Made by a program: the position numbers and the translations under genes
The notes under the pieces: model-generated
Databases searched by the model: none
What the model was told of the DNA's origin: nothing
Seen by the model: only the letters and a program-made list of their open reading frames with translations
NCBI GenBank assembly: GCA_009838195.1
Contig: VXSC01000018.1
Location: 124,001-188,000 of the forward strand
Source of the DNA: Rhodothermaceae bacterium
GTDB lineage: Bacteria; Bacteroidota; Rhodothermia; Rhodothermales; Bin80
Direction of reading: 5' to 3'
Length of the DNA stretch: 64,000 bases
In this document: one piece after another, positions 1,577 to 48,518 of the stretch
Position numbering within the stretch: the stretch's first letter is position 1
Layout of the letters: each line of letters opens with the position of its first letter

Positions 1577-1753
1577 TTAATTTTCAGTGTTTTTGAAGGA
1601 AGCTGCAAGTCGGGTCTCGCGTTGTGCAATAGAGGTCATAATTCTGGCCTCACTTTGTTGTAGGGAGCGAGAAACCTTCCGGTTGATCAGTAAACTAATG
1701 CCGTACAGAATTCCAAAGTTGACAAGTAAAACGACTGCGATGATGGAGATCAT
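1577..1753 (-). pseudogene. Degraded copy 2 of the small membrane protein family
   Basis: Clear homologue of copies 1 and 3: the hydrophobic segment, then NRKVSRSLQQSEARIMTSIA and RLAASFKN. The position matching the start ATG of copy 1 reads TAT here, and a TAG lies in frame a few codons further upstream, so only an internal ATG at 1753 is left, cutting into the membrane segment. The C-terminus stops early at a TAA where copies 1 and 3 continue with EQKGTNA. It could still be translated as a 58-residue peptide. I read it as a copy losing function. Confidence 0.5.
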
Positions 1754-1842
1754 GAGGGTTCCAAAAGGACCTAGGTCATAAATAATTTTGAGGTTGATCT
1801 ACCGTGTCGGTTCCTGACACACAACACCTGCCCACATGGCAC

Positions 1843-2058
1843 TTATGCATTCGTCCCCTTCTGCTCATTTTCAATGTTATTGAGGGAAGCTGCAAGTCTG
1901 GCATCACTTTGTGCAATAGAGGTCATAATTCTGGCCTCGCTTTGTTCTACGGAGCGAGAAACCCGCCGGGTGATTATTGAAATTCCACAGTATATAACTC
2001 CAATGAGGACAAATGAGTAGACTGCGAGGACAAGGGGTTCATATGGGAAAAATAGCAT
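1843..2058 (-). CDS. Small single-span membrane protein, copy 3 of a tandem family
   Basis: 71 residues: MLFFPYEPLVLAVYSFVLIG forms the start of a single membrane segment, followed by TRRVSRSVEQSEARIMTSIA and a helical tail RLAASLNNIENEQKGTNA. The tail is nearly identical to copies 1 and 2, while the membrane part has diverged strongly, so the amphipathic tail seems to be the conserved functional part. The ATG start is followed at once by hydrophobic sequence. Function unknown; no family recognised. Probably the first gene of the three-copy array as read on the minus strand. Confidence 0.55.
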   Translation of the reverse strand: MLFFPYEPLVLAVYSFVLIGVIYCGISIITRRVSRSVEQSEARIMTSIAQSDARLAASLNNIENEQKGTNA

Positions 2059-2509
2059 GTTATCGATCTGTTAAACCTGTTTTATTTTGTCGATTCCTCG
2101 TACACATCGCAATGGCTTACGACAGGTCGGTCAGAACCACGTTTAGAAACACCGATAGGATTCGAAACGTGATCAACTGCTTTGTACACATAAAGTAGCG
2201 TACGTACGCCGGTCTAATCCACGCTGGTCCCCAACGGGAGAATACCAATTCTCATGCAGCGTTTAGGTTCCAGTCTTTCCGAGAAACAGGGGTCACGCCG
2301 GGAGGCTTTTTCTGAGGATTCTTAATTTCGGCTTTGCTAATTTCGAAAACATCTAAAGCTTGCACATAGCAGTGAAATCCTTGGGAATACTATATGATCT
2401 TCAAAGGGTAGAGTCGAGTTAAAAGCGGCAGGGCTATTTTAAAGCGTCAGTGTTTTTCTGACGATTCCATTGCTCCCAGATCTAGGGTCTAGTTCATTCA
2501 ATCATAACC
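2059..2509. other. Intergenic region between divergent genes
   Basis: About 450 bases between the divergent small membrane gene and the SDR gene, so it should hold both promoters. I see no convincing gene. The one visible structure is a perfect 6-bp stem (CGTCAG 2445-2450, CTGACG 2458-2463) with a T-rich 7-base loop, 47 bases before the SDR start. It may be a small hairpin or protein-binding palindrome; it lacks the trailing T-run of an intrinsic terminator. Confidence 0.4.
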
Positions 2510-3235
2510 ATGCGACGCACAATTCTGATTACAGGTGCCAGTACAGGCATAGGTGCCGAAACGGCTCGGTGCCTAGCCAAGGGCAATACCTTAATTCTTC
2601 ACCATAACCAATCCCCGATTGAACCCGTGGTGGAAGAGGTACAGGCTATGGGTGGCACTGCCTATACATCCCAAGCTGATCTCATGAGCGAAGCCGGGTG
2701 TTACTCCCTGATGCAGGAGGTGAACCGTGTTACAGAACACCTTGATGTATTAATCAATAACGCGGGAAGTCTGCTCCAGCGTCACCTGGTTGAAGAGGTG
2801 ACATGGTCACTCATGGAGCGCATCTTTACACTGAATACCTATTCGGCGATGTTGCTTACAAAGCTGTGTGTTCCATTGTTACGGAAAGGAAATTCACCCA
2901 GCATCGTGAACATGACTTCCATTGCAATGCGGCATGGTGCGCCTACAGCAACGGTGTATGGGGCCGCAAAAGGAGCGATGGACTCGTTCACGCGTGGATC
3001 GGCACGTGAGCTTGCCCCGGACATTCGTGTCAATGCGGTTGCTCCTGGTGTGATTCTCACACCATTTCATGATCGCTATTCCACTGACGAAAAATTGGCT
3101 GCTATGGCCAACGATACACCTGTGGGCTTCAATGGCGAAAGTGATCATATCGCGCAGACGGTAAAACTTCTGATCGAAAACTCCTTCATCACCGGCGAGA
3201 CCATAGATGTCAATGGTGGGTTGTTTATGCGCTAA
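2510..3235 (+). CDS. SDR-family oxidoreductase (FabG-like)
   Basis: Classical short-chain dehydrogenase/reductase of 241 residues, the usual length, acting on an unknown alcohol or ketone with NAD(P)(H). The cofactor motif TGASTGIG is at residues 8-15, NNAG at 83-86, the catalytic Ser at about 137 (MTS) and the Y-x-x-x-K pair at Tyr150/Lys154 (VYGAAKG). The C-terminus GETIDVNGG is the typical end of the fold. The ATG has nothing coding in frame just upstream. It stands alone, followed by a 205-base gap before the TonB receptor, so its neighbours give no substrate hint. Many SDRs with this layout are annotated as 3-oxoacyl-ACP reductases, but that specific role is not supported here. Confidence 0.88.
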   Translation: MRRTILITGASTGIGAETARCLAKGNTLILHHNQSPIEPVVEEVQAMGGTAYTSQADLMSEAGCYSLMQEVNRVTEHLDVLINNAGSLLQRHLVEEVTWSLMERIFTLNTYSAMLLTKLCVPLLRKGNSPSIVNMTSIAMRHGAPTATVYGAAKGAMDSFTRGSARELAPDIRVNAVAPGVILTPFHDRYSTDEKLAAMANDTPVGFNGESDHIAQTVKLLIENSFITGETIDVNGGLFMR

Positions 3236-19860: not shown

Positions 19861-20979
19861 ATGGGATTCGTTTCTAGTTCTTTTTTTAAGTGGAGGCTTG
19901 TGGGCGTACTGTTTCTTTTATTGGCGCTTGCAGCATGTCAGAGCGAGGAAATCCCCCTTACCAGATTTGAGAACTCTCCGATCATTGACAGCTTGCTGGC
20001 TGCCGCTCCGCATTTTGTGGTCAATACGGACACCGAACCGGAACGGTGGGTGGCCACAACTCGGCTAGGGCTCCCGAACGATTCATTAATCCTTGGTAGA
20101 CCCTCGAGCATGATCGCAATAGGAGATACTATTTATATCTCTGACCGTCAATCTGAAAACATCTTTGCGGTAGGAGTTGATGGTTATCTCAGCCGGAGAA
20201 TTGGTAGCCCAGGAGAAGGCCCTGGGGAGTTTAAATATTTAGGTTTAGGAGGACTACAATACAATGGTTCGCATGTATTCGCGAAGGATGCGGAACGTGT
20301 ACAAGTGTTCACGGACAAATTTGAATATGTTAGTTCGGTCTTCTCCTTCGATATGTTCCACCGGAGATTTTCGGTTTCGCCCGATCATATATTTCTGGAA
20401 TGCCCGGGCGCCCCACTAGAGAGCGATTGGCTAGTTTGTGCCCGCAGCGCAGCATCCCCGCATGATGGGATTCCGGGCATCGCATTGCTTCCTAGTCTGG
20501 ATCTTCCGAATCAGGGCGGGGAAAACGGCTACCTGGTAACGGTGACTCCAGACGGCGACCGCATTGCCCTGGCATATAAGGGGCTCCCGTATATATTTGT
20601 TTACGACGATCAGTTCAGGCATTTGCGAACGATCCGATTTGAGGGAAGCGATGTTCGTGACTTTGAGCCCATTGCAGGTGCTCCCCCCGCTGCAGCTGGT
20701 GTAGAACTTCCAGCCGGGACGGAGCCTGGCACACGCGGATTCATATCTGCGATAAAGTTCATCAATTCCCGTTATCTGGTTGCAGTAGCACCCGTACTGA
20801 AGAATTATGTTATTGATCTGTCTGAAAATGACTACACGGTTGCAAGGAAAACCATCTTCCGTACCATCGACGATACGAAGGATATTACTGCTTACGATTT
20901 CCTCCTGTATGGAGATTTCCTGTATGTGTCTTCACGGTGGGAAGAATATGTATATGGCTACGAGTTTAACTTAGAGTGA
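19861..20979 (+). CDS. 6-bladed beta-propeller lipoprotein, paralogue A
   Basis: 372 residues. The lipoprotein signal has a hydrophobic core ending LALAAC (lipobox Cys26). The mature part is built of about 45-60-residue blade units: DTIYISDRQSENIFAVGVDG, RRIGSPGEGPGEF, VQVFTDKFEY and YIFVYDDQFRHLRTIRFEG. The GSPGEGPGEF turn is the signature of 6-bladed propeller proteins (DUF5128-like) common in Bacteroidota. It probably acts outside the inner membrane; ligand unknown. Paralogue B follows 341 bases downstream with blocks of near-identical DNA (for example TCCGATCATTGACAGC in both), so the pair arose by tandem duplication. Confidence 0.82.
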   Translation: MGFVSSSFFKWRLVGVLFLLLALAACQSEEIPLTRFENSPIIDSLLAAAPHFVVNTDTEPERWVATTRLGLPNDSLILGRPSSMIAIGDTIYISDRQSENIFAVGVDGYLSRRIGSPGEGPGEFKYLGLGGLQYNGSHVFAKDAERVQVFTDKFEYVSSVFSFDMFHRRFSVSPDHIFLECPGAPLESDWLVCARSAASPHDGIPGIALLPSLDLPNQGGENGYLVTVTPDGDRIALAYKGLPYIFVYDDQFRHLRTIRFEGSDVRDFEPIAGAPPAAAGVELPAGTEPGTRGFISAIKFINSRYLVAVAPVLKNYVIDLSENDYTVARKTIFRTIDDTKDITAYDFLLYGDFLYVSSRWEEYVYGYEFNLE

Positions 20980-21320
20980 GGGGGATTAGGGGGTGTTGCC
21001 ATGTGAGGCATTCTGAGGTCCTAATTTACGATCAGTGGGCTAGATGAGGGTTCTCCAAACCCTGACTCGTTCATTCCTCGTTGATTCTGAGCCATTTATG
21101 GGAACCTCTCTGGGCAAATCGTAGCAGAACTGCCGCCGCGGCCGCTAGGCAGATGCTCTGCAACGGAAGACGATCCAACCTCCTGTAATTGTTAAATTTT
21201 TTGTGAGGTCGTAAAATTGCTTGGAATTCGAATCGCGTTCGTATACTCCGTTGCGTTCGCTTACCCTTTTAGAATATTGTGGGTTGCTCACTGAGCAATC
21301 ATACGTGTGAATCAGTACGG
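20980..21320. other. Spacer between propeller paralogues
   Basis: 341 bases, GC-rich in the middle (about 21130-21180) and AT-rich near 21190-21225. It presumably holds the promoter of paralogue B. No gene or terminator recognised. Confidence 0.35.
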
Positions 21321-22451
21321 ATGGATTTCGTTTCTCTTCCCAGCATACCCATCAGATGGAGGTATGCGGGGATCCTGTTTCTTTTATTGCCCTTTGCCGC
21401 ATGTCAGAGAGCGGGAATCCCCCTTACCAGATTTGAGGACTCTCCGATCATTGACAGCTTGCTGGCTGCCGCTCCACACCTTGTGGTCAACACGGACATT
21501 GGGGCGGAAAGATGGACTGCAACGGCCAGAATTGGGCTTCCAAATGATTCGTTAATTCTCGGTCAGCCTTCGCATATGATGGCGATCGGAGATAGTGTTT
21601 ATATCTCTCAGTACCCGCCATCACATATCTTTGCCGTGGGAGCGGATGGCTATCTCCGCCGTGAAATTGGCCGGCCAGGAGAAGGTCCTGGAGAGTTTAC
21701 TTTTATCAGTGGCTTGCAGTACAACGGTTCGCACGTATTCGTCAAGGAGATGGAGCGCGTACAGGTTTTCACGGAGAAGTTTGAGTATCTCGATTCGTTC
21801 TTCTCCCTGGATATAGAGCACGGAAGATTTTCGGTTTCGCCCGATTATATGTTTCTGCAATGTCCTTGGGACGTCCCTCAAGAGTACGACTGGCTAGTCT
21901 GTGCTCGTAGTACATCACCCCCTTACGACTGGATTCCGTCTATCGAATTGCTTCCTGGTTTGGATCTTCCGAATCAATCGGGGGAAAACGGCAACCTCGT
22001 AACGGTGACTCCTGACGGGGATCGAATTGCCCTGGCATATAAGGGGCTTCCGTACATCTTTGTTTACGATGATCAGTTCCGGCATGTGCGAACGATTCGA
22101 TTCGAGGGAAAAGAGGTTGAGAACTTTCAGCCGGCGGGGTTTCCTGGTACAGATATTGCAGAACTGCCAGCCGGGACGGACGCTTTCACGCAGGCATTTC
22201 TACTCACCATGAAGTTCGTCGATTCCCGCTATTTGATTGTACGGGCAGCCAAAGGTGGGGGAAACGGGGACTACATTCTCGATGTATCCGAAGATGATTA
22301 TAGGCTCGCAAAAAAGATTGTTTTCCGCCCCATGGACGACTCGGAAGAGAGAAAGGATATTGTTGCAAAGGACTACCTACTGTACGGGGATCACCTGTAC
22401 GTATCTTCAATATGGCAAGAGTACGTATACGGCTACCCGTTCGACCTGTGA
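21321..22451 (+). CDS. 6-bladed beta-propeller lipoprotein, paralogue B
   Basis: 376 residues from the ATG at 21321. I prefer this to an in-frame upstream start at 21279 because MDFVSLPSIPIRWRYAGILF then aligns with the start of paralogue A (MGFVSSSFFKWRLVGVLF). Lipobox PFAAC. Blade features are shared with A: VYISQYPPSHIFAVGADGYL, REIGRPGEGPGEF, VFTEKFEYL and YIFVYDDQFRHVRTIRFEG. The middle and the 3' half have diverged more than the conserved blade block. Immediately after its stop codon lies the decayed istB relic, so an insertion sequence once landed right behind this gene. Role unknown; probably periplasmic or surface binding. Confidence 0.82.
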   Translation: MDFVSLPSIPIRWRYAGILFLLLPFAACQRAGIPLTRFEDSPIIDSLLAAAPHLVVNTDIGAERWTATARIGLPNDSLILGQPSHMMAIGDSVYISQYPPSHIFAVGADGYLRREIGRPGEGPGEFTFISGLQYNGSHVFVKEMERVQVFTEKFEYLDSFFSLDIEHGRFSVSPDYMFLQCPWDVPQEYDWLVCARSTSPPYDWIPSIELLPGLDLPNQSGENGNLVTVTPDGDRIALAYKGLPYIFVYDDQFRHVRTIRFEGKEVENFQPAGFPGTDIAELPAGTDAFTQAFLLTMKFVDSRYLIVRAAKGGGNGDYILDVSEDDYRLAKKIVFRPMDDSEERKDIVAKDYLLYGDHLYVSSIWQEYVYGYPFDL

Positions 22452-23027: not shown

Positions 23028-23330
23028 ATGTCTCTAAGATTGAAAAAATCAAGAAAAAAGAACCTATTGCAAAAATATTTTTTCGGAGGCGAATATCACT
23101 CCAGGAGTACCTGTGGGCATATTTTTGACGTAGTAAAGGACTTTTTCAGGAGGCTCGAAAACAAAAACCAGATAAAATATTTGGTGTTTAGTTTCATAAG
23201 TCGTATGCTTGGCCATCCAGTAGTTGCTCTCCGTCTCACAGGGCTGGGAGAAACTACTGGTCTAGCAAACAAATTGAATCATTCATTCTACACGAATGGA
23301 TACAAAACCAAATCATTTTACAATGCGTAA
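23028..23330 (+). CDS. Hypothetical basic protein preceding the Cys-peptide genes
   Basis: 100 residues, Lys/Arg-rich at the N-terminus (MSLRLKKSRKKNLLQKYFFG), with no signal peptide and no recognised family. Its TAA overlaps the ATG of the first Cys-peptide gene (ATGCGTAA), an arrangement that would couple translation and matches the overlaps that follow. Against it being real: composition is ordinary for AT-rich DNA and no homologue comes to mind. It may be a genuine first gene of the cassette or only a leader region. Confidence 0.35.
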   Translation: MSLRLKKSRKKNLLQKYFFGGEYHSRSTCGHIFDVVKDFFRRLENKNQIKYLVFSFISRMLGHPVVALRLTGLGETTGLANKLNHSFYTNGYKTKSFYNA

Positions 23331-23589
23331 GCGAAAAAATTCCTTGATACGATCGTGTCTTGCTCTGTTTTGTGCAGTTTTGCTGGTGTTTCTCGGAAGT
23401 AGTAGTAATGCATACTCACACACCGACATAAAATGCAATTGGACGTGTAGCTGGATGTTATGCGAGGGCGGGAGTGTTCCGTGTCGGGGGGCGGGCGTCA
23501 GATGTTGCCACACTGAGGATCTTCCCTGTACTTCAGATGATACATGGGGTGTTCAATGTATGGGAAGGCTTGACACATTTTTACAATGA
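23323..23589 (+). CDS. Exported 8-cysteine peptide 1
   Basis: 88 residues from the ATG at 23323 (an upstream in-frame ATG at 23296 would add 9 residues before the signal peptide and is less likely). The Sec signal is basic MRKRKNSLIR, a hydrophobic core LALFCAVLLVFLG, and a probable cleavage site after SSSNAYS. The mature part of about 56 residues has eight cysteines, including a CC pair, enough for four disulfides. No family recognised. The SSSNA... junction and small size recall the NVEALA peptides of Bacteroides, which often sit beside 6-bladed propeller genes, but there is no sequence identity beyond that. Its TGA overlaps the next start (ATGA). Confidence 0.65.
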   Translation: MRKRKNSLIRSCLALFCAVLLVFLGSSSNAYSHTDIKCNWTCSWMLCEGGSVPCRGAGVRCCHTEDLPCTSDDTWGVQCMGRLDTFLQ

Positions 23590-23843
23590 AAATAATTAAT
23601 ACTCGTAAATCTCGGGTGCTGTTTGCATCGTTGATATTCACATTACTTGTTGGTCTATCGGGGTGGACATCTAGCAATGCTGGACTTAATCCTGACTGTG
23701 GTAGCGCACAATCATGTCGCGCGGTGGGATGTGGAGGAGGAAATCAGTTGTGTGCGTTGATGGAATGTGATTTATGTGTTGAAGACTTTTTATGCGTGCC
23801 GTTTGTCCAGATATGTACTTCGTGGGGATGGTCACCTATATAA
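23586..23843 (+). CDS. Exported 8-cysteine peptide 2
   Basis: 85 residues. Signal peptide MKIINTRKSRVLFASLIFTL... with a likely cleavage near TSSNAG. The mature region again has exactly eight cysteines (DCGSAQSCRAVGCGGG, LCALMECDLC, FLCVPFVQIC), but spacing differs from peptide 1, so they are related in design more than in sequence. The start lies in the stop of peptide 1 (ATGA) and the stop lies in the start of the propeller gene (TAATG), so the three genes are tightly coupled. Function unknown; a secreted disulfide-rich peptide or a substrate of the thioredoxin-like protein downstream are both possible. Confidence 0.65.
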   Translation: MKIINTRKSRVLFASLIFTLLVGLSGWTSSNAGLNPDCGSAQSCRAVGCGGGNQLCALMECDLCVEDFLCVPFVQICTSWGWSPI

Positions 23844-24904
23844 TGAACGGTAGATACGCTATCCTGGTCTTCTTTTTTACTTTGTCCTGCAGCAGTGGGG
23901 GGAATAGTGAACGTAGTGAAGATGAGGCCGTCTTCGGGGATGTGTTTTTATTAGAAAAAGCTGAGGAGCAACAAACAAGGGAAAGGGTTTGGAAAGATGT
24001 GTCTGTGAGTAAGCTGTATGAGTTGGCTGCGGATGAAGATATTGTCCTGTATGATCCCGGGTATATCATACCGGATCCCAATGGAGATGTGTATGTTGTA
24101 GACTACGGGATATATGAGGTTTTGCGGTTTGATTCTGAGGGCAATTATATCAGGTCCTATGGCGATGGTATTGGTCGTGCCCCTGGCGAATTTGTAAGCA
24201 TAACTAATGTTGAAGTCACAACTGATTCGCTCATGTATGTAACAGATCCCAACAACTGGAGAATTTCTTCTTTCTCAAAGGCAACAGGGAAGTTTGTGGA
24301 TTCGAGAGCATTTGGCAGGCAGGAGGCTCCTACTCGGCACGCCATAACAGACACAGGCAAAGAATACATTCTCCGAATGTTTAATAAACTATTCTTTGAA
24401 TCTAATTACGGGGGTAAATCGGTTGAATTTGGAGAATTATTAGAGGGTGACCCTTCTGTTCTCCCAAGTAATCTACTGGCAGATGGGATGTTTGACACGT
24501 ATAAAGACTGGTTGGTTTATGTTCCTTTTCGTTTTCCTGTAATTATGATTTATGATGTGAATGGCACTCTCCTTCGGGCAAAGAAGACAATGACCTTTGA
24601 CAGGTTTGAAGAGCCCGAGCTTGTACCAGATGTGACAAATGGAATTGCGAGCTATATCGTTGAAGGCTCTAACGTGAATGGTCCATATATGAGTATCGTG
24701 GGAGACGAATTGTTTCTTCAGTCCCTTGAGTCCCGCGGTGATTCAGGAATAATTGTTGATGTATATGAAGCTGGGTCGGCCGAGTACAAGTATTCTTTTA
24801 GGATAGATTACAAGGCGTCTTTTATAACAAATGATCGAATATACCAGATAGACGGTGATGCCGTTGTGACTGTTAATTCATATTCAATAAACGGATCTTC
24901 TTAA
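23843..24904 (+). CDS. 6-bladed beta-propeller lipoprotein C, coupled to Cys-peptides
   Basis: 353 residues from the ATG at 23843, which overlaps the preceding stop as TAATG. An upstream in-frame start at 23792 would run inside the Cys-peptide gene and spoil the signal peptide. Lipoprotein signal MNGRYAILVFFFTLSC with lipobox TLSC. The propeller body includes YIIPDPNGDVYVVDYGIYEV, RSYGDGIGRAPGEF and DSLMYVTDPNNWRISSF. It is much more diverged from paralogues A and B than they are from each other. The translational coupling suggests it works with the two Cys-peptides outside the inner membrane, perhaps by binding them. Confidence 0.8.
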   Translation: MNGRYAILVFFFTLSCSSGGNSERSEDEAVFGDVFLLEKAEEQQTRERVWKDVSVSKLYELAADEDIVLYDPGYIIPDPNGDVYVVDYGIYEVLRFDSEGNYIRSYGDGIGRAPGEFVSITNVEVTTDSLMYVTDPNNWRISSFSKATGKFVDSRAFGRQEAPTRHAITDTGKEYILRMFNKLFFESNYGGKSVEFGELLEGDPSVLPSNLLADGMFDTYKDWLVYVPFRFPVIMIYDVNGTLLRAKKTMTFDRFEEPELVPDVTNGIASYIVEGSNVNGPYMSIVGDELFLQSLESRGDSGIIVDVYEAGSAEYKYSFRIDYKASFITNDRIYQIDGDAVVTVNSYSINGSS

Positions 24905-25123
24905 GTCAGGAAGGAGTCGAGGTATAGGTCTTTTACGAAAGAAGTTTTCTACCTCACCAGGGTACCACCTACCACCTGTCATCCAAAAGTAAAAGTTTCT
25001 TCGACTTGTGTTGGGTCATGTTGTTCATTGAACGGGCTTGCATCGAACTTCTTCCGTGCGGAAGACATTTTGGGGTTTGGGTCTAAATCGTATCGTGTTG
25101 ATACAAGTTTCAGAGAAATTACA

Positions 25124-25606
25124 ATGAGGTATTTAGAATGGACAATGTATGTGCTGGTAGTAGTAGCATTACTGTTTTTTCTTCGAGTAACTTTTTTTGC
25201 CAAGTCGATTGATGACCACGGCATTGTGGATACCCTTCCGGCTATGTTAGAATATTTTCATGAGGATCAGGATAGATTAGTGTTAATTGTATTAACTCCT
25301 ACCTGTCCATATTGTCTACAGAGTTATCCCTTTTACAGAACACTTGTTGCAGAGAAAAGCGAAAATACTGGGGTAGTCGCCGGTATTAATCCAAGTATAT
25401 CTATTGAACTTCAAAGACGCATACTTCAAAAAGAAAATCTATCTGTTGATACATTGATTGCTCTGCCCAACCAAGATTGGGGAATAACTTCCGTTCCAAC
25501 GATTATCATTTTGGATGATAGAGCAAGAGTTGAGCATGTGTGGGTTGGTCTCCTTGATGCTGACCGGGAAAAGAAAGTTCTATCTGTTGTTGCCCAGAAC
25601 GAGTAG
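25124..25606 (+). CDS. Membrane-anchored thioredoxin-like protein (CPYC)
   Basis: 160 residues from the ATG at 25124; an in-frame TTG at 25028 would add 32 residues ahead of the membrane segment. One N-terminal membrane helix (about 7-24, YVLVVVALLFFLRVTFF) anchors a periplasm-facing thioredoxin fold. The active site is TPTCPYCLQSYPF (Cys61, Cys64) and the cis-proline loop is TSVPTI (Pro125). It resembles the TlpA/MauD class of thiol-disulfide proteins; CPYC is glutaredoxin-like and suits reduction or isomerisation more than strong oxidation. It lies 219 bases after propeller C on the same strand. With two 8-Cys exported peptides just upstream, they are the obvious candidate substrates. Confidence 0.78.
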   Translation: MRYLEWTMYVLVVVALLFFLRVTFFAKSIDDHGIVDTLPAMLEYFHEDQDRLVLIVLTPTCPYCLQSYPFYRTLVAEKSENTGVVAGINPSISIELQRRILQKENLSVDTLIALPNQDWGITSVPTIIILDDRARVEHVWVGLLDADREKKVLSVVAQNE

Positions 25607-26006
25607 TTTATCCTTTCAAGCTAATCGTTTGACAATAATGGATTCGATTTCGAACTGTGATCCAGGGATACCGGATTTTGCAGTCGGATAGGTCGGGTTC
25701 AGCGGGTCTGTAGTTTTTGAAGGGTTTTGCCGTGAGGAGAGCTTGGGTCGAGAACTTGGCGAGTTCTTTATTCAGGGTGGTAACCAAGCCTCTTTTTGCC
25801 ACCGGGTTTGTAGGTGTCGGGGCAACCTAAGGGTCGGCGAACCTGGACAAAAACGGATCCTGTCCCCGTGAATATTAATGTTTAGTGGTCCTATCACCGT
25901 ATATATAATAATCTCTCATTGGCGGCGGTCAATCTATCCAAATACATCCAGAAATATTGGAAAATCTACGATTGAAAGGAGCCAAGAGGGGACAATTCAA
26001 GTAACA
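25607..26006. other. Intergenic region with a short shared motif
   Basis: 400 bases between the thioredoxin-like gene and the second sulfatase. No convincing gene. About 25661-25689 resembles 22452-22480, the segment right after propeller paralogue B (22 of 29 positions by my count, core CAGGGATAC), so a small repeated element or insertion-sequence scar may be present at both places. A short inverted feature, GGACAAAAACGGATCCTGTCC, lies near 25843-25863. Confidence 0.35.
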
Positions 26007-27401
26007 ATGCTAAAATCAGGGATTATGCACATTTACCGGGGACTCGTTGCTGGATTGCTGCTTATGCTTGGCAGCGCATGCAGTTCATCCGCTCCACCCA
26101 ACATCGTGCTGATAATTGGCGATGATCACGGGTATCCATATTTCGGTTTTACGGGATCGGCTCATGTTCACACGCCACACATGGACCGTTTGGCGCATGG
26201 GGGTGCGCTCTTTACACAGGGGCACACAACGGACAACCATTGCCGTCCAGCCCTTCAGACGCTCAGTACGGGACTGTACCCTATACAGTATGCTGCCCAG
26301 ATGGAAGTGTTCAAGGCACGGGATCAGGTAACTGATCCCGAATATGGTCAACTTGCTCCCGAAGAAAAAGTGCAGTGGGGGTTCCTGTATGAAGCCAGTG
26401 CCATGCGTAAATTTGAGACCCTTCCCGGTCTACTGTCTCGCGCAGGCTATGCCAGCTTTCAGGCGGGCAAGTGGTGGGAGCAATCCTTCACCAATGGTGG
26501 ATTTACCGAAGGTATGTCAGAGGGATGGGCTCCAGATGAAGTTGGTCAGCCAGGCTTTTTCGGAAAACTCATGGGAGGTGACGGTGTGGAACTCGTTCGG
26601 GAGACATCGCAGCCGGTGTTTGATTTTATTGACCGTAATCTAAATACCCCTTTCTTCCTGTGGTATGGGCCCTCCCTGCCGCATGTTCCTCTGAATCCCC
26701 CTGAAGAATATTATTCGAGGTATAGGGATACCAATCTGTCTGAGTCAGCCAAGGAGTATTATGGCAATTGCACATGGTTCGATGCCGGAGTAGGAGACTT
26801 GTTGAACCACCTGGAAGTGCGCGGGCTTCTTTCAAACACGTTGATCGTATATGTGAACGACAATGGTTGGGAACAGCCCCCCTTTGAAGAATACAAGGAT
26901 GTCCCCATACTCTACAACAATGGCGGTCCCAACGGGAAGCTGTCACTACATGATCAGGCTTTTCGAACCCCGATAATTTTCAATTGGCCGGGTGTGATCG
27001 GTGCTGCCGTTTTTGATGATGTACTTGTGAGCAGCGCGGATCTACTGCCAACGCTGTTGGACTATGCTGGCGTAGAAATACCGGAGTACCTGCCAGGGGT
27101 ATCCCTGCGTCCGGCGATTGAAGGTCGAGGTAGCATCCAGAGAGATGCTTTGATTGGACGGGTCACGCAAATGCGATCTGAGATCGATCCAATGGGCAAG
27201 CGTCAGACGGGGTACTATGTTCGTACGCGCCAGTGGCATTTCACCTCTACGGAAGGAGAGGTCAGGCTCTTTAATGTGGAGAAAAATCCATTTGAAGATG
27301 TTAGCTCAGATCACCCGGAATTGATTCCAGGGTTTCTGGAGCAGATTGAAGACTGGACGAAAGAGTTCAGTTCTACTGTTCTGGATCCCAGTCTTGAATA
27401 G
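26007..27401 (+). CDS. Sulfatase lipoprotein with CRPAL active-site motif
   Basis: Formylglycine-type sulfatase of about 464 residues, starting at the ATG at 26007 (25878 is a possible far-upstream start, 26025 a possible later one). Lipoprotein signal with lipobox GSAC. PPNIVLIIGDDHGYPYFGFT gives the N-terminal metal-binding Asp-Asp. The activation motif reads TTDNHCRPALQTLSTGLYP, so C-x-P-x-R is C-R-P-A-L, with Leu replacing the usual Arg. AGKWW replaces the usual GKWH. VYVNDNGWEQPP gives the late Asp-Asn pair. It is probably outer-membrane or periplasm anchored. The altered motif makes maturation by formylglycine-generating enzyme uncertain, though related CRPSL variants exist as I recall. 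Confidence 0.9.
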   Translation: MLKSGIMHIYRGLVAGLLLMLGSACSSSAPPNIVLIIGDDHGYPYFGFTGSAHVHTPHMDRLAHGGALFTQGHTTDNHCRPALQTLSTGLYPIQYAAQMEVFKARDQVTDPEYGQLAPEEKVQWGFLYEASAMRKFETLPGLLSRAGYASFQAGKWWEQSFTNGGFTEGMSEGWAPDEVGQPGFFGKLMGGDGVELVRETSQPVFDFIDRNLNTPFFLWYGPSLPHVPLNPPEEYYSRYRDTNLSESAKEYYGNCTWFDAGVGDLLNHLEVRGLLSNTLIVYVNDNGWEQPPFEEYKDVPILYNNGGPNGKLSLHDQAFRTPIIFNWPGVIGAAVFDDVLVSSADLLPTLLDYAGVEIPEYLPGVSLRPAIEGRGSIQRDALIGRVTQMRSEIDPMGKRQTGYYVRTRQWHFTSTEGEVRLFNVEKNPFEDVSSDHPELIPGFLEQIEDWTKEFSSTVLDPSLE

Positions 27402-31604: not shown

Positions 31605-32279
31605 ATGAGCAATTCCTCCAATCAATTAATTCCGAAGAAAACGGTGCTCATGACCAGAGCCCAACAGGTTGATCGCAACCGTGCCATCGTCCAAGACCTC
31701 AAGGGGGGGATGAGCACCACGGGGGCCGCAGTCAAGCATGGATTAAGTGCCGAACGGATTCGCCAGATCGCCAGACAGATCGGGGTACCGCTCCCTCGGG
31801 GTAGACTCACCAAAGCCGCGTCCGCTGAGCGCAACCGCGCCATTGTCCAAGATCTTCGGGGGGGGGGGATGAGCATCAAGGGGGCTGCCACCAAGTACGA
31901 CCTAAGTGGCTACTGGATCAAGGAGATCGCCAAGCAGAACGGGGTGTCGCTGCCCCCAAGCCCGCAAATGCACGCAAAGCGCAACCGAGCCATTGCCCGG
32001 GATGTCCGGGGTGGAATGAGGTGTATAGAGGTCGCGACTAAGTACGGGTTGACCCAGCCCAGTATCTGGCGTATCGCTCAGGCGGAGGGAGTAGACATGT
32101 CGGGAAGGAGAGGATCCCGCGGGCATCGGGAACGCCCCCGGGAACGTGACCGGGAACGTAACCGCCAGATCGTCCAAGACCTCAAGGCTGGCATGAGCCG
32201 CAAGGAGACCGCGACCAAGTACGGGCTGAGTAGAAATAGAATCGGCGAGATCGCTAGACATGGCAAGGCAACGTCCTAA
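31605..32279 (+). CDS. Protein of four tandem helix-turn-helix units, with poly-G tract
   Basis: 224 residues, mostly four repeats of about 38 residues: 24-61, 76-114, 126-163 and 185-220. Each runs R-N-R-x-I-x-x-D-(L/V)-(K/R)-x-G-M-(S/R), then (V/A)-x-K-(H/Y)-x-L-(S/T)-x-x-x-I-x-x-I-A, as in RNRAIVQDLKGGMSTTGAAV and VATKYGLTQPSIWRIAQAEG. This is the trihelical HTH pattern of transposase/resolvase N-terminal or sigma-region-4-like domains. No catalytic domain is attached. Repeats are joined by basic linkers, the last being RERPRERDRERNRQ. Repeat 2 contains an 11-G tract giving an extra Gly. Likely a DNA-binding protein; no known family of this architecture comes to mind. No neighbour is coupled to it. 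Confidence 0.6.
   Translation: MSNSSNQLIPKKTVLMTRAQQVDRNRAIVQDLKGGMSTTGAAVKHGLSAERIRQIARQIGVPLPRGRLTKAASAERNRAIVQDLRGGGMSIKGAATKYDLSGYWIKEIAKQNGVSLPPSPQMHAKRNRAIARDVRGGMRCIEVATKYGLTQPSIWRIAQAEGVDMSGRRGSRGHRERPRERDRERNRQIVQDLKAGMSRKETATKYGLSRNRIGEIARHGKATS
31858..31868 (+). repeat. Poly-G tract (11 G) inside the HTH-repeat gene
   Basis: Eleven consecutive G bases encode the end of Arg85 and Gly86-88 of the HTH-repeat protein. The corresponding place in repeat 1 has seven G (31703-31709) and repeats 3 and 4 have none this long. A gain or loss of one base would shift the frame after repeat 1, so this is a candidate slippage (phase-variation) site. Confidence 0.8.
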
Positions 32280-41745: not shown

Positions 41746-42225
41746 CTATCGGCAAATACAGCGACGTTGATCCAGAAACTGCTGCCGCTTATTCCTCTTC
41801 TGGGAGCGAGGGTAAATGGCTATGTTGACGCGCTTTACTGTTTTGACATAGTCCTTGATATCCTTTTTCAGATCCTCATCATCCGTGACTATGATTTCTG
41901 CGTTGCTCGCGAGAATCAATGCTAATATGTCTTCATCGTCAGATTTAAGTCTCTCCAATTCCAATTCGCTCTTAGCGATTTTCATCTTTCGCTCTGAAAT
42001 ATACCTCGCTTTGCCGCTTTCTCGATATGCTTGAAGTTTTTGTTTGAACCTCTTAGTCCGACCTAGTTCTTGTCCAAGTTTTCCGGTGCCTGTGTAGCAG
42101 AGTACGCCATATCCGTACTCTATCCATTTCAAAAGGGGATCCGGCTTTTCTGCAACGATAATTTTGGGTACGACCAAACTCACTGAGTTTGAATCAATTA
42201 TCGTCGGCGTACACATGTGGCTCAA
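41746..42225 (-). CDS. PIN-like nuclease subunit, overlapping an AAA ATPase
   Basis: About 159 residues (or 156 from the ATG at 42216). Pattern of a PIN-fold RNase: N-terminal TIIDSNSVSL with an Asp-x-Asn, an acidic segment SDDEDILALILASNAEIIVT, then TDDEDLKKDI with the late Asp. Together these supply the three or four acids of a PIN active site. The C-terminus is basic. It overlaps the end of the AAA ATPase gene by 23-32 bases, so they are translationally coupled. An ATP-driven sensor controlling an RNase is the obvious model for a phage-defence module, but the pair does not match a named system I can recall with certainty. Confidence 0.65.
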   Translation of the reverse strand: MSHMCTPTIIDSNSVSLVVPKIIVAEKPDPLLKWIEYGYGVLCYTGTGKLGQELGRTKRFKQKLQAYRESGKARYISERKMKIAKSELELERLKSDDEDILALILASNAEIIVTDDEDLKKDIKDYVKTVKRVNIAIYPRSQKRNKRQQFLDQRRCICR

Positions 42226-43426
42226 TGCCTAGGTAATCGTCTGTCTCCTTATTGAAGAACTCGCGGTACTTTGCTGGTGCACCCAAAAGATTGCCATTCT
42301 CGTCGAATCCTAGCTCGTGAATCGTGGCAGCTGTACCAGTTTTCTCAAGCCATAAAATTCCGACATCCTCGAAGTCCAATATCTCCTTTCGCACACAGAT
42401 AGACAGCCGGTTAATGATGAAATCAGAGTGCGATTCTACAATGAATTGATGGGGTGAATGTGCTATGAGTTCGGCCAACTGTGCCTGTGCCATCGGGTGC
42501 AGATGAGCCTCAGGTTGTTGGAGTAATATTGTCTTGTTCGGCCCTTCCTTACGCATTGCCCTGAGAGCAGGTAAAATTGCATGAATACCAAGGCCAACAT
42601 CGGAAACATTGAAAAAGTGATTGTTAAACCCGACCTCCAATTCAAAGGATGAGTCTCCTGTACTGCGAATTCGAATTTGGTCAAATAGGGACAATTTCCG
42701 GCCAATCTCGGACAATTCCTCGGATTCCCTAGGTTCAATTGGGAGGGCTGTGTTCCAACCGTACTGTCGCTGCTGGGGTTCTAAATAAGGGCTTATACTT
42801 TCAAGAATTATTGGACTCCATGGCAGTTTATTGGAGAGGTTTTTTAAGTAATCATTAAGCTCAGTCTTGGGAGACTTATCGGGTGGGGCTGATCCATTTT
42901 CGCGAACTTGACCAACTTCTTCTCTGTATGGAAAATCTCCGTGCCTCACTGCAAATGCAAGCCATTGGGATATTTGGCCGTATATGATGTTGTCTGCACT
43001 CACCAAGATTTCAAAAGAGCGAGTGGACATTCTCAATTCGCGAGTTGAGTCTTCCCGAGTAATTGTCAGTTCTTCAAGCCCAATTGGTTTTATCTTAACC
43101 TGTTCTTCGAAAAGGCCTCTTTTGTTTTTGCAAAATTGAAATAGGAATTCAATACCATTTGCACTTCCACCCAGCGAGAATTTTTTGTGTCCTACCCGGG
43201 CAATATTTTCAAGGGCACCCATGCGAAAGGGGGCAATGTTGAATGGGTTGTATTCCATTGCGTTCTGGTTGGCAACCAATCTTGCAAACGCGCTGTAGCA
43301 GCCTAGAAGCGTAGTCTTTCCAGAGCTGTTTTCCCCGATTACTACGGTGATTCGTGGTAATGCTACAGAGTGCTCTGCCTCAAAGCACCTAACATTCGAC
43401 AGACTTATTCTGTCAATCTTGGTCAT
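42194..43426 (-). CDS. AAA ATPase (OLD/RecF-like), paired with PIN nuclease
   Basis: 410 residues. N-terminal ISLSNVRCFEAEHSVALP then Walker A VVIGENSSGKTTLLG (about 29-43), the ABC/SMC-like head shared by OLD, RecF and defence ATPases. A central region (about 60-260) is unlike RecF. The Walker B region reads TILLQQPEAHLHPMAQAQLA, with Gln-Pro-Glu where most members have Asp/Glu. The H-loop is FIVESHSDFIINRLS. This H-P/S-H-S-D-F pattern is typical of OLD-type ATPases fused or paired with nucleases. It overlaps the downstream PIN gene. Cytoplasmic; role inferred as antiphage because of its neighbours. Confidence 0.85.
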   Translation of the reverse strand: MTKIDRISLSNVRCFEAEHSVALPRITVVIGENSSGKTTLLGCYSAFARLVANQNAMEYNPFNIAPFRMGALENIARVGHKKFSLGGSANGIEFLFQFCKNKRGLFEEQVKIKPIGLEELTITREDSTRELRMSTRSFEILVSADNIIYGQISQWLAFAVRHGDFPYREEVGQVRENGSAPPDKSPKTELNDYLKNLSNKLPWSPIILESISPYLEPQQRQYGWNTALPIEPRESEELSEIGRKLSLFDQIRIRSTGDSSFELEVGFNNHFFNVSDVGLGIHAILPALRAMRKEGPNKTILLQQPEAHLHPMAQAQLAELIAHSPHQFIVESHSDFIINRLSICVRKEILDFEDVGILWLEKTGTAATIHELGFDENGNLLGAPAKYREFFNKETDDYLGIEPHVYADDN

Positions 43427-43508
43427 TTTGAGTCCTTGAAATCTTGGTCAATTTTGTAGCATCAAGTTCATAGAATCAGGACAAATCTCTCTGCGCCGAA
43501 CAAGGGGT

Positions 43509-43709
43509 TCAGTAGCTATCTCGATGCAATGACCTTAATACCGTGGATATTTTGAAGGGGTAATCTCCTCCAATGTTCCCAATAACGTCGGGATATAATT
43601 CGCTGGTCGGAGCAACGGCTTTTCCGGCAAGCGCTATCTGTAGATATATTTGAGGGATAGATAGTACCCATTCACATGGCAGATCAATCCGAATGGTGAC
43701 AACATGCAT
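43509..43709 (-). CDS. Hypothetical small protein between AbiEii and the AAA gene
   Basis: 66 residues starting 17 bases downstream of the AbiEii stop on the same strand, with protein-like text (LPCEWVLSIPQIYLQIALAG, DYPFKISTVLRSLHRDSY). No family recognised, no signal peptide. Its position between the AbiE operon and the AAA/PIN pair would suit a small accessory gene, but homology support is lacking and it may be a chance frame. Confidence 0.35.
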   Translation of the reverse strand: MHVVTIRIDLPCEWVLSIPQIYLQIALAGKAVAPTSELYPDVIGNIGGDYPFKISTVLRSLHRDSY

Positions 43710-43726
43710 CTAAAATTGCAGGTGTA

Positions 43727-44923
43727 TCATGATGGCTGGATTTTGGGCCGTAGCTCGACCAAGTAGCGAGGAACGAAAGCCTGTTGTGTGATAGTTGCCC
43801 CATGGATTTGGTCAATCTCGTACCTGCAATGCTCTCCGTTAGTAACGCTGATGGCATGAAGCACAAGGTCGCCATCTTCTGTACGACGCAATGAATATGG
43901 CTCAATGCGATGGATTGATTGTTTGTACTGGAGGTCAACATATAGGTAGTTCACCGCTGCAAAACGGATAGATTCCAAGTATGATTGTGTGGTGCGCTTG
44001 ACAAGTAAGCTCATGGTAGGTTCTCTGACCACCACTTCACCCGCTGTCATCTTTTCTATGGCAGATAATGAAGGTGGGGCACCGCTTTCAAGCCAGTCAA
44101 AAAATTCAGGCAATGCATTGAAATAAGACTCAATTGGAGGAAGTTCTTGAACTTGATGTCTCAGCATTGGAACCCAAGTACGTTCAAGCTCCTTCCTTTT
44201 TGATTGCACATCAACAAGCGTTGGGATCGGATTTCCACGGTGAGCACATTTTTTCCGGATTGAATCATTTAGAACAGATAGATTAGGATGTTCCTCATTG
44301 CTGCGAAATATATTGATTGCATCATACAGATCCTGTGCTTTAGCGTGTTGTGCCAAAGCGCAAATGTTTTCTGCATAGGCCTCCTCTGGAGGGTAGCACC
44401 TTATGAGAGGTTCCCCTTGTGGATTATCGCTATAGCAGTGATGGATAATGCGTACAACTGGCGGCAGTACAATAACATCGTCAAACGTTAGGTCGAGCTT
44501 GAGGATTGGGAGTGAGAAATACCCCTTTAATGAGCCAATGGGGCCACGATAACCAATCTTACCCTGGCAAGATTCGGAACCGAGAGCATTTGTGTAAATC
44601 TCAAAGTTAAGTAGTTCTTTCGGAATTTCAAGACCAGCTTGCTCAAAAACCCATTCACTGATTTCGCTGAATGTTTCAATGAGAAAGTCACGGCTGAGGT
44701 GGGACGGTTCTACAATCGTGAAATCAAGGTCTTCGGAAAATCGATAAGTTTCGTAATGACACTTATGGAAGCTGGTCCCTCCCTTGAAGATCCAGCTATT
44801 CTTCAGTGAGGAATGATGATAGATACCGGTTAAAACCCATCCAAGCACATAGTCTTTCTCAATAACATAAGGTTGCAGTCTGCATAAACGTGCGACATTC
44901 ATAACCTCTTTCTTAATAACCAT
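43727..44923 (-). CDS. AbiEii/AbiGii nucleotidyltransferase toxin
   Basis: 398 residues. The nucleotidyltransferase core is FKGGTSFHKCHYETYRFSED followed by LDFTI, that is G-G-T-S then D-x-D-F, the signature of AbiEii-type (DUF1814) toxins of type IV toxin-antitoxin systems. VIEKDYVLGWVLTGIY is the conserved lead-in. Such toxins transfer nucleotides to tRNA or other targets and cause reversible growth arrest on phage infection. It overlaps the antitoxin gene by 11 bases (stop inside start), as in other AbiE operons, and is therefore co-regulated with it. Longer C-terminal part (about 270-398) is less conserved. Confidence 0.92.
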   Translation of the reverse strand: MVIKKEVMNVARLCRLQPYVIEKDYVLGWVLTGIYHHSSLKNSWIFKGGTSFHKCHYETYRFSEDLDFTIVEPSHLSRDFLIETFSEISEWVFEQAGLEIPKELLNFEIYTNALGSESCQGKIGYRGPIGSLKGYFSLPILKLDLTFDDVIVLPPVVRIIHHCYSDNPQGEPLIRCYPPEEAYAENICALAQHAKAQDLYDAINIFRSNEEHPNLSVLNDSIRKKCAHRGNPIPTLVDVQSKRKELERTWVPMLRHQVQELPPIESYFNALPEFFDWLESGAPPSLSAIEKMTAGEVVVREPTMSLLVKRTTQSYLESIRFAAVNYLYVDLQYKQSIHRIEPYSLRRTEDGDLVLHAISVTNGEHCRYEIDQIHGATITQQAFVPRYLVELRPKIQPS

Positions 44924-45725
44924 CTCTTTCGTATTGGAAATCCCTTTCAGGAACCCAAAGGCGCCATTTCGTCACCAGTCGGGGGCATGGAAAGCCGGGA
45001 GCAATTTTGGCATTACCTTTAGTCATTCTCTTCTTGCAAGCATCAACGAGATATGTACAGTCTGACATGCGTTCTGCCAGAAAGCCTAGGCGTTTGAAGA
45101 CGGCTCCATTGCCGAGACGTTCTGCGTAGGAAATCAGTTTTTTATCCTGTCGGCGGTTATGACGTAAGTATTCTCCAAAGCAGGCAATCACATGATCTAT
45201 CCCACCACAGAACAAGGGGTCATCCAAAAGGTCCAAAATAGTTCGGGGAAGATCTGAGATAGCGATCTTTATATTTTCGTACCATACACACTCAAGGCCA
45301 AAAATTTTATTGGGATGAATATGCTTTACAGTGTATCTAAGGCCTAAGTGACGTTGATATCTGGATCTCACGGGCTTTCCAGTGAATACGACCGTGTCGA
45401 TGAAGATCTGTTCTGTAAGATCCCAATATTCAGTCATGGTTCGACCACCGAGATATGCCGGATCAAATAACGCTGGTACGACCATCCAAGAGTGATTCAG
45501 TACCTGTCCCAGATCCATACAGCCGAGTTCTGCTACTGCATAGATTCCTGGGCCAACCCGTCGCAGATAACCCTGACTGCCCCACCGGGAAAGTAATTTC
45601 GAAGCGGTGGAACGGTTGACATTGAGGGATCGCCCGACATCGTCAATGCGAACAATATCTCCAGCGGTTCTCAATACAGTGGCCAGTCTAATTCGGCCTT
45701 TGGGTAGACTAATCTCCTTGATCAT
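44913..45725 (-). CDS. AbiEi antitoxin / transcriptional repressor
   Basis: 270 residues. N-terminal winged helix-turn-helix (about 8-65; VRIDDVGRSLNVNRSTASKL LSRW..., GYLRRVGPGIYAV) followed by the AbiEi C-terminal antitoxin domain (about 70-270; QVLNHSWMVVPALFDPAYLG, RTILDLLDDPLFCGGIDHVI). AbiEi both neutralises AbiEii and represses the operon by binding inverted repeats upstream. A 6-bp-arm inverted repeat lies 6 bases upstream of its start (45732-45751) and the promoter segment is duplicated further upstream. Confidence 0.9.
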   Translation of the reverse strand: MIKEISLPKGRIRLATVLRTAGDIVRIDDVGRSLNVNRSTASKLLSRWGSQGYLRRVGPGIYAVAELGCMDLGQVLNHSWMVVPALFDPAYLGGRTMTEYWDLTEQIFIDTVVFTGKPVRSRYQRHLGLRYTVKHIHPNKIFGLECVWYENIKIAISDLPRTILDLLDDPLFCGGIDHVIACFGEYLRHNRRQDKKLISYAERLGNGAVFKRLGFLAERMSDCTYLVDACKKRMTKGNAKIAPGFPCPRLVTKWRLWVPERDFQYERDGY

Positions 45726-47578: not shown

Positions 47579-47876
47579 CAGTTGCCTTTCTCCGTATGCT
47601 CATCATTGCGTGCGCCCTTCGTCAGTGGTTCGTGAGATTTGATCCCCGCTGTTAATAGAATCGGGTTTACTAAACATCTCCTTGCGAACCGTTGGTTCAA
47701 CGTAACCAAGACAAGATTAGACTACGTCACAGATCGATAGATTCGCTCAGTCAGGCGAAAAGATCCATCTGATTAGGATACATGCTGACGTGGATATATG
47801 CTCTGCGGAATCTTTTTCTACCACTGGCAAGTAAATTTCATTGCAAATCAGTTTGGAAACCAGACCGATCCCGGCC

Positions 47877-48518
47877 ATGAGACTCATTGTTGGTTTTACT
47901 GGAATTCTGGCAATAGTTGGGCTTAGCTCCTGCTCCGTTACTTCAATATTTTCTGAGAATAAGGCCGAGTGCTCTACTGAGCATTTGCATTGCAGTGGTA
48001 ATCACTCATGCTCTTCCACTCCAGATTCGTGCACTGCCTGTTCCATGGTAGACGGTGAACTAGAGTGCGACACGGTGACACACTCGAGGATCCCAAAGAT
48101 GTGTGCATCTAGCTCTGGTTTCCAATGTGTTGGCGACATTACATGTTCGGCATCCCCGAATTCGTGTACTGCCTGTTCCATGGTAGACGGCCAACGAAAG
48201 TGCACTACGACGACGCTCTGGAAGGACTCAGAAGCGTGCTCATCCAGTTCTGGTCTTCAGTGTGTTGGCGACATTGAATGTTCGAAAACCCCTGATTCGT
48301 GTACTGCCTGTTCCGCGGTAGACGGCCAACTAAAGTGCACCACGATAACGTTCTCAAGGGACCCAAAGACATGCACATCCAACTCTGGTCTCCAGTGTAC
48401 AGGCGACATTGAATGTTCAGCGACCTCTAACTGGTGTACCGCCTGTTCGTGGGTAGACGGCAGGAAAGAATGTCATGCTACTACTTCTAATTCAAGGATC
48501 GTAAAAGTGCAAAGCTGA
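47877..48518 (+). CDS. Lipoprotein of four 6-cysteine tandem repeats
   Basis: 213 residues from the ATG at 47877; an upstream TTG in frame (47841) is unlikely because it would bury the signal. Signal ends GLSSC (lipobox, Cys19). The mature part is four repeats of 44-45 residues (31-74, 75-119, 120-164, 165-209), each with six Cys at C-x6/7-C-x5-C-x6-C-x2-C-x8-C. Conserved core: GLQCVGDIEC, SCTACSMVDGQ, KCTT. 24 Cys plus the lipid Cys suggest twelve internal disulfides, so an extracytoplasmic binding or structural protein. I recognise no family; the ordered Cys pattern recalls small EGF-like modules but not a known one. Confidence 0.7.
   Translation: MRLIVGFTGILAIVGLSSCSVTSIFSENKAECSTEHLHCSGNHSCSSTPDSCTACSMVDGELECDTVTHSRIPKMCASSSGFQCVGDITCSASPNSCTACSMVDGQRKCTTTTLWKDSEACSSSSGLQCVGDIECSKTPDSCTACSAVDGQLKCTTITFSRDPKTCTSNSGLQCTGDIECSATSNWCTACSWVDGRKECHATTSNSRIVKVQS
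47967..48503 (+). repeat. Four tandem 132-135-bp coding repeats
   Basis: DNA repeats encoding the 6-Cys modules; unit length 132, 135, 135 and 135 bases. Shared text such as TGTACTGCCTGTTCC and CAGTGTGTTGGCGACATT recurs at fixed spacing. Units 2 and 3 are closest. Such tandem repeats can change in number by recombination. Confidence 0.75.

What the first reader, a model, noticed from the sequence alone, without database searches (positions are those of the whole stretch)
23028..25606. Cassette of exported 8-Cys peptides, a propeller lipoprotein and a membrane thioredoxin
The start/stop overlaps (ATGCGTAA, ATGA, TAATG) tie a basic protein, two exported peptides with exactly eight cysteines each and a 6-bladed propeller lipoprotein into one translational unit, with a membrane-anchored CPYC thioredoxin-like protein on the same strand 219 bases later. 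The peptides differ in Cys spacing, so the cysteine count is kept while the sequence changes. A plausible system: disulfide-rich peptides matured by the thioredoxin-like protein and bound by the propeller. NVEALA peptides beside propeller genes in Bacteroides are a loose precedent.
Basis: partly seen in the sequence, partly recalled or inferred. Interest (0 to 1): 0.68.

Follow-up and report, generated by a model that had tools for sequence, protein, structure and literature searches.

The report
Paired cysteine-rich peptides, propeller, and thioredoxin
A marine Rhodothermales bacterium (at least one relative lives in a sponge) carries a four-gene cassette, recurring in many related genomes, of two exported disulfide-type peptides, a fast-evolving propeller lipoprotein that probably binds them, and a well-conserved membrane thioredoxin that probably folds them; neither the peptides nor the combination matches a catalogued family.

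Summary
Window 23323-25606 holds, on one strand, exported peptide A (8 mature Cys), exported peptide B (8 Cys), a 6-bladed NHL-type propeller lipoprotein and a membrane-anchored CPYC thioredoxin. The first ORF (23028-23330, the 'basic protein') has no counterpart in related loci and should be dropped.

The other four genes recur as a unit in three families of the order (12 genomes carry both peptide A and the thioredoxin). Peptide A keeps 8 Cys; peptide B has a 6-Cys core plus an optional pair. Exported Cys peptides lie directly upstream of 19 of 70 propeller genes and 0 of 175 other genes. In a Bacteroidales-type genome 6 of 6 NVEALA peptide genes also precede a propeller lipoprotein. In Acidobacteriota, homologues of the thioredoxin sit beside unrelated exported Cys-rich peptides. 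The thioredoxin is under purifying selection; propeller and peptides diverge fast, the propeller most on its predicted ligand face.

Best reading: Sec-exported disulfide peptides folded with a dedicated thioredoxin and bound by a co-diversifying lipoprotein. The biological role (bacteriocin/immunity, signal/receptor, host interaction) is unproven. No Pfam or NCBIfam family covers the peptides, and I found no paper describing the arrangement.

The parts
23323..23589 (+). Peptide A: Sec-exported, about 56 aa after the signal peptide, 8 Cys (C..C..C.GG..C..CC..edlPCt..C); ATG at 23323 (an in-frame ATG lies at 23296)
   Evidence: Alignment A1, 13 homologues, 7 Cys invariant and the eighth nearly so; 13 of 114 genomes of the order; no Pfam, NCBIfam or PHROGs family at a meaningful E-value
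23586..23843 (+). Peptide B: Sec-exported, 8 Cys; 6-Cys core shared with shorter homologues, last two Cys are an extra pair
   Evidence: Alignment A2; 6-Cys core invariant; found in 13 of 245 genomes of the class, including two weak hits outside the order; related to A
23843..24904 (+). 6-bladed NHL-type beta-propeller lipoprotein (lipobox Cys16)
   Evidence: PDB profile search, AlphaFold pLDDT 84.7, Foldseek to NHL domains, BF0058 (4raa) and DUF4221 (3s9j); Cys16 at least 90% conserved; fast evolution, strongest on the predicted top face
25124..25606 (+). Membrane-anchored extracytoplasmic thioredoxin-like protein, CPYC
   Evidence: Thioredoxin_2/Redoxin (just under the Pfam cut-offs), StoA/ResA as closest solved structures; 88-89% identical in three genomes of the genus; C61 and cis-Pro125 invariant in 17 homologues, second Cys replaced in 3
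23028..23330 (+).
   Evidence: No tblastn relative in the homologous loci; DNA homology starts at about 23310

Best explanation
The cassette makes two paralogous disulfide-stabilised peptides. Shown: A and B carry predicted signal peptides, keep even sets of cysteines while other residues change, and are encoded immediately before a 6-bladed propeller lipoprotein and, at most full loci, a membrane-anchored thioredoxin. Inferred: Sec exports the peptides; the thioredoxin, facing the periplasm and fed by the cell's VKOR and/or DsbD-type partners, forms or reshuffles their disulfides; the propeller, anchored by its lipid, binds the finished peptides with its variable top face, so that each peptide set has its own matched propeller. 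Most likely role: an outward-acting, rapidly diversifying peptide ligand with its cognate binding protein (bacteriocin-like effector with immunity/display protein, or ligand with receptor) in bacteria at least one of which lives in a sponge.
For: Recurrence: peptide A in 13/114 genomes of the order, thioredoxin in 14 clear, 12 shared; propeller and thioredoxin adjacent in most loci and in some within a few bases or overlapping (L079, L081, L082); no other gene recurs around most cassettes. Disulfide-type cysteines: 8 of 8 kept in A; B core of 6 with an extra pair in some; 24 of 25 peptides upstream of propellers have an even count (after correcting L071 for a signal-peptide Cys and dropping one artefact; p 1.5e-6 by sign test, sequences not independent). 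Peptide-propeller link: 19/70 vs 0/175, p 6e-12; NVEALA parallel 6/6. Thioredoxin-peptide link without propeller in Acidobacteriota: 6 of 15 loci vs 2 candidates per 144 kb background, two more by eye. Selection: thioredoxin dN/dS mostly 0.15-0.3, propeller 0.4-1.0, peptides mostly 0.3-0.9; predicted top face and channel vary more (0.30 vs 0.19; 3 of 296 circular shifts reach it), pooled dN/dS 0.90 vs 0.65, several pairs above 1. VKOR and DsbD families present in the genome.
Against: No binding, redox or expression data. Three homologous thioredoxins lack the second Cys (CPYS, CPYS, CPYT), so a simple oxidase role cannot hold everywhere. Some propellers have peptides without the thioredoxin and most propellers have no detected peptide. 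A group of short peptides has 5 Cys (L047, L099). The peptide model is poor (pLDDT 71) and matches no solved fold. dN/dS values are crude pairwise estimates; blade and face assignment was made by hand from DSSP.
Confidence: 0.55

Rival explanations
1. Bacteriocin with lipoprotein immunity: A and B are secreted two-peptide antibacterials, the propeller neutralises them at the producer's surface, the thioredoxin folds them. (A specific form of the best explanation.)
For: Two tandem exported disulfide-type peptides, matched fast-evolving lipoprotein, tandem duplication and decayed copies (G004, G007), patchy distribution.
Against: No dedicated transporter or protease recurs; immunity by a propeller has no precedent known to me; the mature peptides are not notably cationic.
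Confidence: 0.25
2. The peptides are small disulfide-rich subunits of a stable surface complex built on the propeller, assembled with a MauD-like thioredoxin, much as the methylamine dehydrogenase light chain (Cys-rich, exported) pairs with a propeller heavy chain and needs MauD.
For: Same part list in outline: Cys-rich small chain, propeller, membrane CPxC thioredoxin; peptide directly upstream of propeller; weak MauD profile match (E 0.12).
Against: No conserved Trp pair or other cofactor-forming residues in A or B; the propeller is 6-bladed NHL type and no conserved His or other catalytic set stands out among its invariant residues, mostly G, P, D; no mauE/mauF-type gene recurs.
Confidence: 0.2
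3. Metal-binding exported peptides (for Cu, Zn or similar) with a propeller as docking lipoprotein and the thioredoxin as keeper of reduced Cys.
For: High Cys density, CxxC and CC motifs, DsbD-family protein present.
Against: Even Cys numbers changing in pairs point to disulfides; no conserved His/Met partners; VKOR present.
Confidence: 0.08
4. Chance neighbourhood: unrelated small ORFs beside an abundant propeller family.
For: Propellers of this superfamily are numerous in these genomes.
Against: Conserved homologous peptides, conserved overlaps, 19/70 vs 0/175, recurrence in three families of the order and one further order of the class.
Confidence: 0.02

Closest known systems
NVEALA peptides (Pfam PF14055) with 6-bladed propeller lipoproteins in Bacteroidales
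   Same: Short exported peptide with a few Cys, multicopy, each gene directly followed on the same strand by a propeller lipoprotein (6 of 6 in G329; DUF5128, DUF4221 or TolB_like)
   Different: No detectable peptide homology (hhalign prob 4 and 1.5); NVEALA leader motif absent here; 2-5 Cys rather than 8; no thioredoxin in the NVEALA loci read
Methylamine dehydrogenase maturation (MauA/MauB/MauD)
   Same: Small exported Cys-rich chain, propeller partner, membrane CPxC thioredoxin-like protein (from general knowledge of the mau cluster)
   Different: No homology of the small chains to solved structures, 6-bladed NHL propeller, no conserved Trp for TTQ, no MauE/MauF; MauD profile match far below cut-off
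StoA/ResA/TlpA-type membrane-anchored thioredoxins
   Same: Topology, CxxC, cis-Pro, closest solved relatives
   Different: Distinct subfamily (CPYCxxSYPFY), below the StoA, ResA and MauD cut-offs, genetically tied to Cys-rich peptides
Bacteroidota propeller lipoproteins BF0058 (4raa), DUF4221 (3s9j), DUF5128
   Same: Fold and lipoprotein character
   Different: Own sequence subfamily, no Pfam DUF5128 match at E up to 1, paired with A/B peptides
Disulfide bacteriocins with dedicated oxidoreductases (for example sublancin with BdbB; from general knowledge)
   Same: Secreted disulfide peptide next to a dedicated thiol-disulfide oxidoreductase gene
   Different: No ABC exporter/protease or glycosyltransferase; Sec signal peptides; propeller lipoprotein present

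Membership tests
NVEALA (PF14055) | NVEALA motif and profile match | tested here: not met
   No match in the whole genome and none for A or B; profile-profile prob 4 and 1.5
NVEALA-type arrangement (peptide directly followed by propeller lipoprotein) | Exported short peptide gene immediately upstream, same strand, of a 6-bladed propeller lipoprotein gene | tested here: met
   Window and 19 of 70 propeller loci; 6 of 6 in NVEALA loci
NHL-type 6-bladed propeller | Profile match to NHL chains and six four-stranded blades | tested here: met
   six blades assigned by hand from DSSP
Thioredoxin superfamily, membrane-anchored extracytoplasmic | CxxC, cis-Pro, N-terminal membrane segment | tested here: met
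   second Cys missing in 3 of 17 homologues
MauD | TIGR02661 above its cut-off | tested here: not met
   11.9 bits against a cut-off of 188.6
Methylamine dehydrogenase | Conserved Trp pair for TTQ in the small subunit | tested here: not met
   No conserved Trp in A1 or A2
Peptide amidating lyase (NHL propeller acting on peptides) | Conserved zinc-binding His residues | tested here: not met
   No His among invariant propeller positions
Bacteriocin with immunity protein | Killing activity and protection of the producer | not testable with these tools
   Needs bench assay
Disulfide-folded secreted peptide | Signal peptide and even, conserved Cys | tested here: met
   disulfides themselves not observed

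The most novel reading that the evidence does not exclude
A general, undescribed class of exported peptide-propeller pairs in Bacteroidota (NVEALA peptides included by arrangement), in which a surface or periplasmic propeller lipoprotein recognises a cognate, rapidly diversifying disulfide peptide, with a dedicated thioredoxin subfamily that serves different Cys-rich peptide families in both Rhodothermales and Acidobacteriota.
Probability: 0.4. Interest if true: 0.85.

Novelty: new variant of a known kind. Interest (0 to 1): 0.66.

Why it matters
Propeller lipoproteins of the DUF5128/DUF4221 type are numerous in Bacteroidota and, as far as I know, have no assigned ligand. The pairing with an exported peptide gene suggests a ligand encoded next door, which can be tested by co-purification. 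It also defines two new peptide families and a thioredoxin subfamily that flags exported Cys-rich peptides in Acidobacteriota, a handle for finding secreted disulfide peptides in uncultured bacteria, including sponge symbionts.

Tried and rejected
ORF1 as a cassette member: rejected, no homologue. Peptide amidating lyase or MADH chemistry: rejected for lack of conserved His or Trp. NVEALA homology of the peptides: not detected. Radical-SAM Cxxx-repeat target family (TIGR04117): only a weak match of one Acidobacteriota peptide (E 0.013). Fold search with the peptide A model: nothing. Paper searches for NVEALA or for this combination found no description.

Full report
What is there. On the plus strand, window 23323-25606 encodes peptide A (88 aa, 8 Cys after the signal peptide), peptide B (85 aa, 8 Cys), a 353-aa lipoprotein and a 160-aa membrane-anchored CPYC thioredoxin-like protein. 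The same ATGA and TAATG overlaps occur in the G009 copy (coordinates). ORF1 (23028-23330) is not supported: none of the homologous loci has it, and nucleotide homology begins just before the start of peptide A.

Family tests. Neither peptide matches Pfam, NCBIfam or PHROGs at a meaningful E-value, nor any solved chain. The lipoprotein is a 6-bladed NHL propeller. The thioredoxin is a StoA/ResA-like protein that falls below all curated cut-offs.

Recurrence. The window lies in a genome of about 3.0 Mb; named records of close relatives are Rhodothermaceae and Rhodothermales MAGs. One of them, MPNB bin80, comes from the sponge Aplysina aerophoba (PMC5649159). The thioredoxin is found in 14 clear genomes of the order and peptide A in 13 of 114, 12 genomes having both. 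They span families f1, f5 and f14. No peptide A was found outside the order in 395 genomes of the phylum. In most of these loci the order is peptide(s), propeller, thioredoxin; in several the propeller and thioredoxin genes are within a few bases or overlap (L079, L081, L082). All-against-all comparison of the neighbourhoods shows no other gene recurring around most cassettes; a sulfatase and an RND efflux pair appear near a few. Duplicated and decayed copies exist (G004, G007, G008), as do intact ones.

Cysteines. All 13 A peptides keep eight Cys (seven columns invariant, one nearly so). B has six invariant Cys across families f1 and f5 and two B-like peptides found upstream of other propellers, and an additional C-terminal pair in f1. 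A and B are related by profile (prob 93, E 2.4e-7; part of this is the signal peptide). The parity of the count and the change of Cys in pairs point to disulfides; disulfides were not observed.

A wider pattern. A scripted test (signal-like N terminus, at least 4 Cys and 7% Cys after it, at most 140 aa, within 400 bases upstream on the same strand) finds such a peptide at 19 of 70 propeller genes and 0 of 175 other ORFs of the same loci (p 6e-12; one of the 19, L080, looks like an artefact, and the loci were chosen by propeller or thioredoxin match, not by peptide). The peptides include other types: 6-Cys B-like ones (L053, L059, and L213 where the peptide stop abuts the propeller start), and 4-, 5- and 10-Cys ones. 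In another order of the class, L211 has a short peptide with the C.aiGCkGGd..C core, then a propeller, then a membrane protein cut by the end of the locus that may be a degenerate thioredoxin. In a Bacteroidales-type genome (G329) all six NVEALA genes are followed directly by a propeller lipoprotein. The NVEALA peptides are not homologous by profile, so the parallel is one of arrangement.

The thioredoxin in another phylum. A search in Acidobacteriota found homologues in 35 of 199 genomes, the best at E 1e-20 or better. At 6 of 15 loci examined an exported peptide with at least 6 Cys lies next to the thioredoxin, against 2 candidates elsewhere in 144 kb; two more loci (L151, L186) have Cys-rich small ORFs that the strict test missed. 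These peptides are unrelated in sequence to A and B (one, L172, has a weak B-profile match, E 3e-3) and no propeller is near. A thioredoxin subfamily that keeps company with different exported Cys-rich peptides is best explained by thiol-disulfide service to them. Several of the homologues, including some of the best-scoring ones (L180, L182-L184, L187), had no such neighbour by this test.

Selection. Among genomes of the genus the thioredoxin has dN/dS of about 0.15-0.3 in five of six pairs (0.68 in the closest), whereas the propeller has 0.4-1.0 and the peptides mostly 0.3-0.9. Blades were assigned by hand from the predicted structure. Variation is higher in the channel strands and top-face loops than elsewhere (0.30 against 0.19; 3 of 296 circular shifts reach this). 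Pooled dN/dS is 0.90 there and 0.65 elsewhere, with several pairs above 1 at the top face. The top face is the usual ligand site of propellers (general knowledge). These are simple pairwise estimates and need a codon model.

Mechanism. I propose export of A and B by Sec, disulfide formation or reshuffling with the membrane thioredoxin (VKOR and DsbD family proteins exist in the genome), and binding of the peptides by the propeller's variable face. Export is predicted from sequence; thiol service and binding are inferred from the comparative evidence; the final role is open. Three thioredoxins with CPYS or CPYT suggest an isomerase or mixed-disulfide role in at least some loci.

Verdict. The weakest point is function.

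Noticed in passing
window 19861-20979 and 21279-22451: Two tandem, closely similar propeller lipoproteins (DUF5128 type) on the same strand without a detectable exported peptide upstream; a relative lies near thioredoxin and propeller remnants in G001 (L077).
   Followed up: partly
window 47841-48518: 225-aa exported protein with repeated Cys-rich units (C..dI.CS..P.SCTACS.VDG...C); no Pfam match.
   Followed up: no
L088 (G000:C11:121000-132000), propeller 1704-2777 minus strand: A second exported Cys peptide (6 Cys in total) 148 bases upstream of another propeller in the window's own genome.
   Followed up: partly
L185, L186, L189, L190, L191, L192, L172, L151: Acidobacteriota: exported peptides with 8-14 Cys beside homologues of the thioredoxin, no family match above cut-off in Pfam or NCBIfam.
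   Followed up: partly
L072, L078, L081: RND efflux genes (membrane fusion protein and/or pump) close to the cassette in three genomes (G001, G057, G051).
   Followed up: no
L047, L048, L099: Exported peptides with an odd count of 5 Cys (TEACAGGCEEADCPGSGAPCC) upstream of propellers; an intermolecular bond or other use of the fifth Cys is possible.
   Followed up: no
window 41746-45725: AbiEi/AbiEii-type toxin-antitoxin pair next to an OLD-like AAA ATPase gene and a small companion.
   Followed up: no
window 31605-32279: Protein made of several repeated helix-turn-helix units.
   Followed up: no
window 25878-27401: Sulfatase lipoprotein gene downstream of the cassette; sulfatases are near a few other copies too.
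   Followed up: partly
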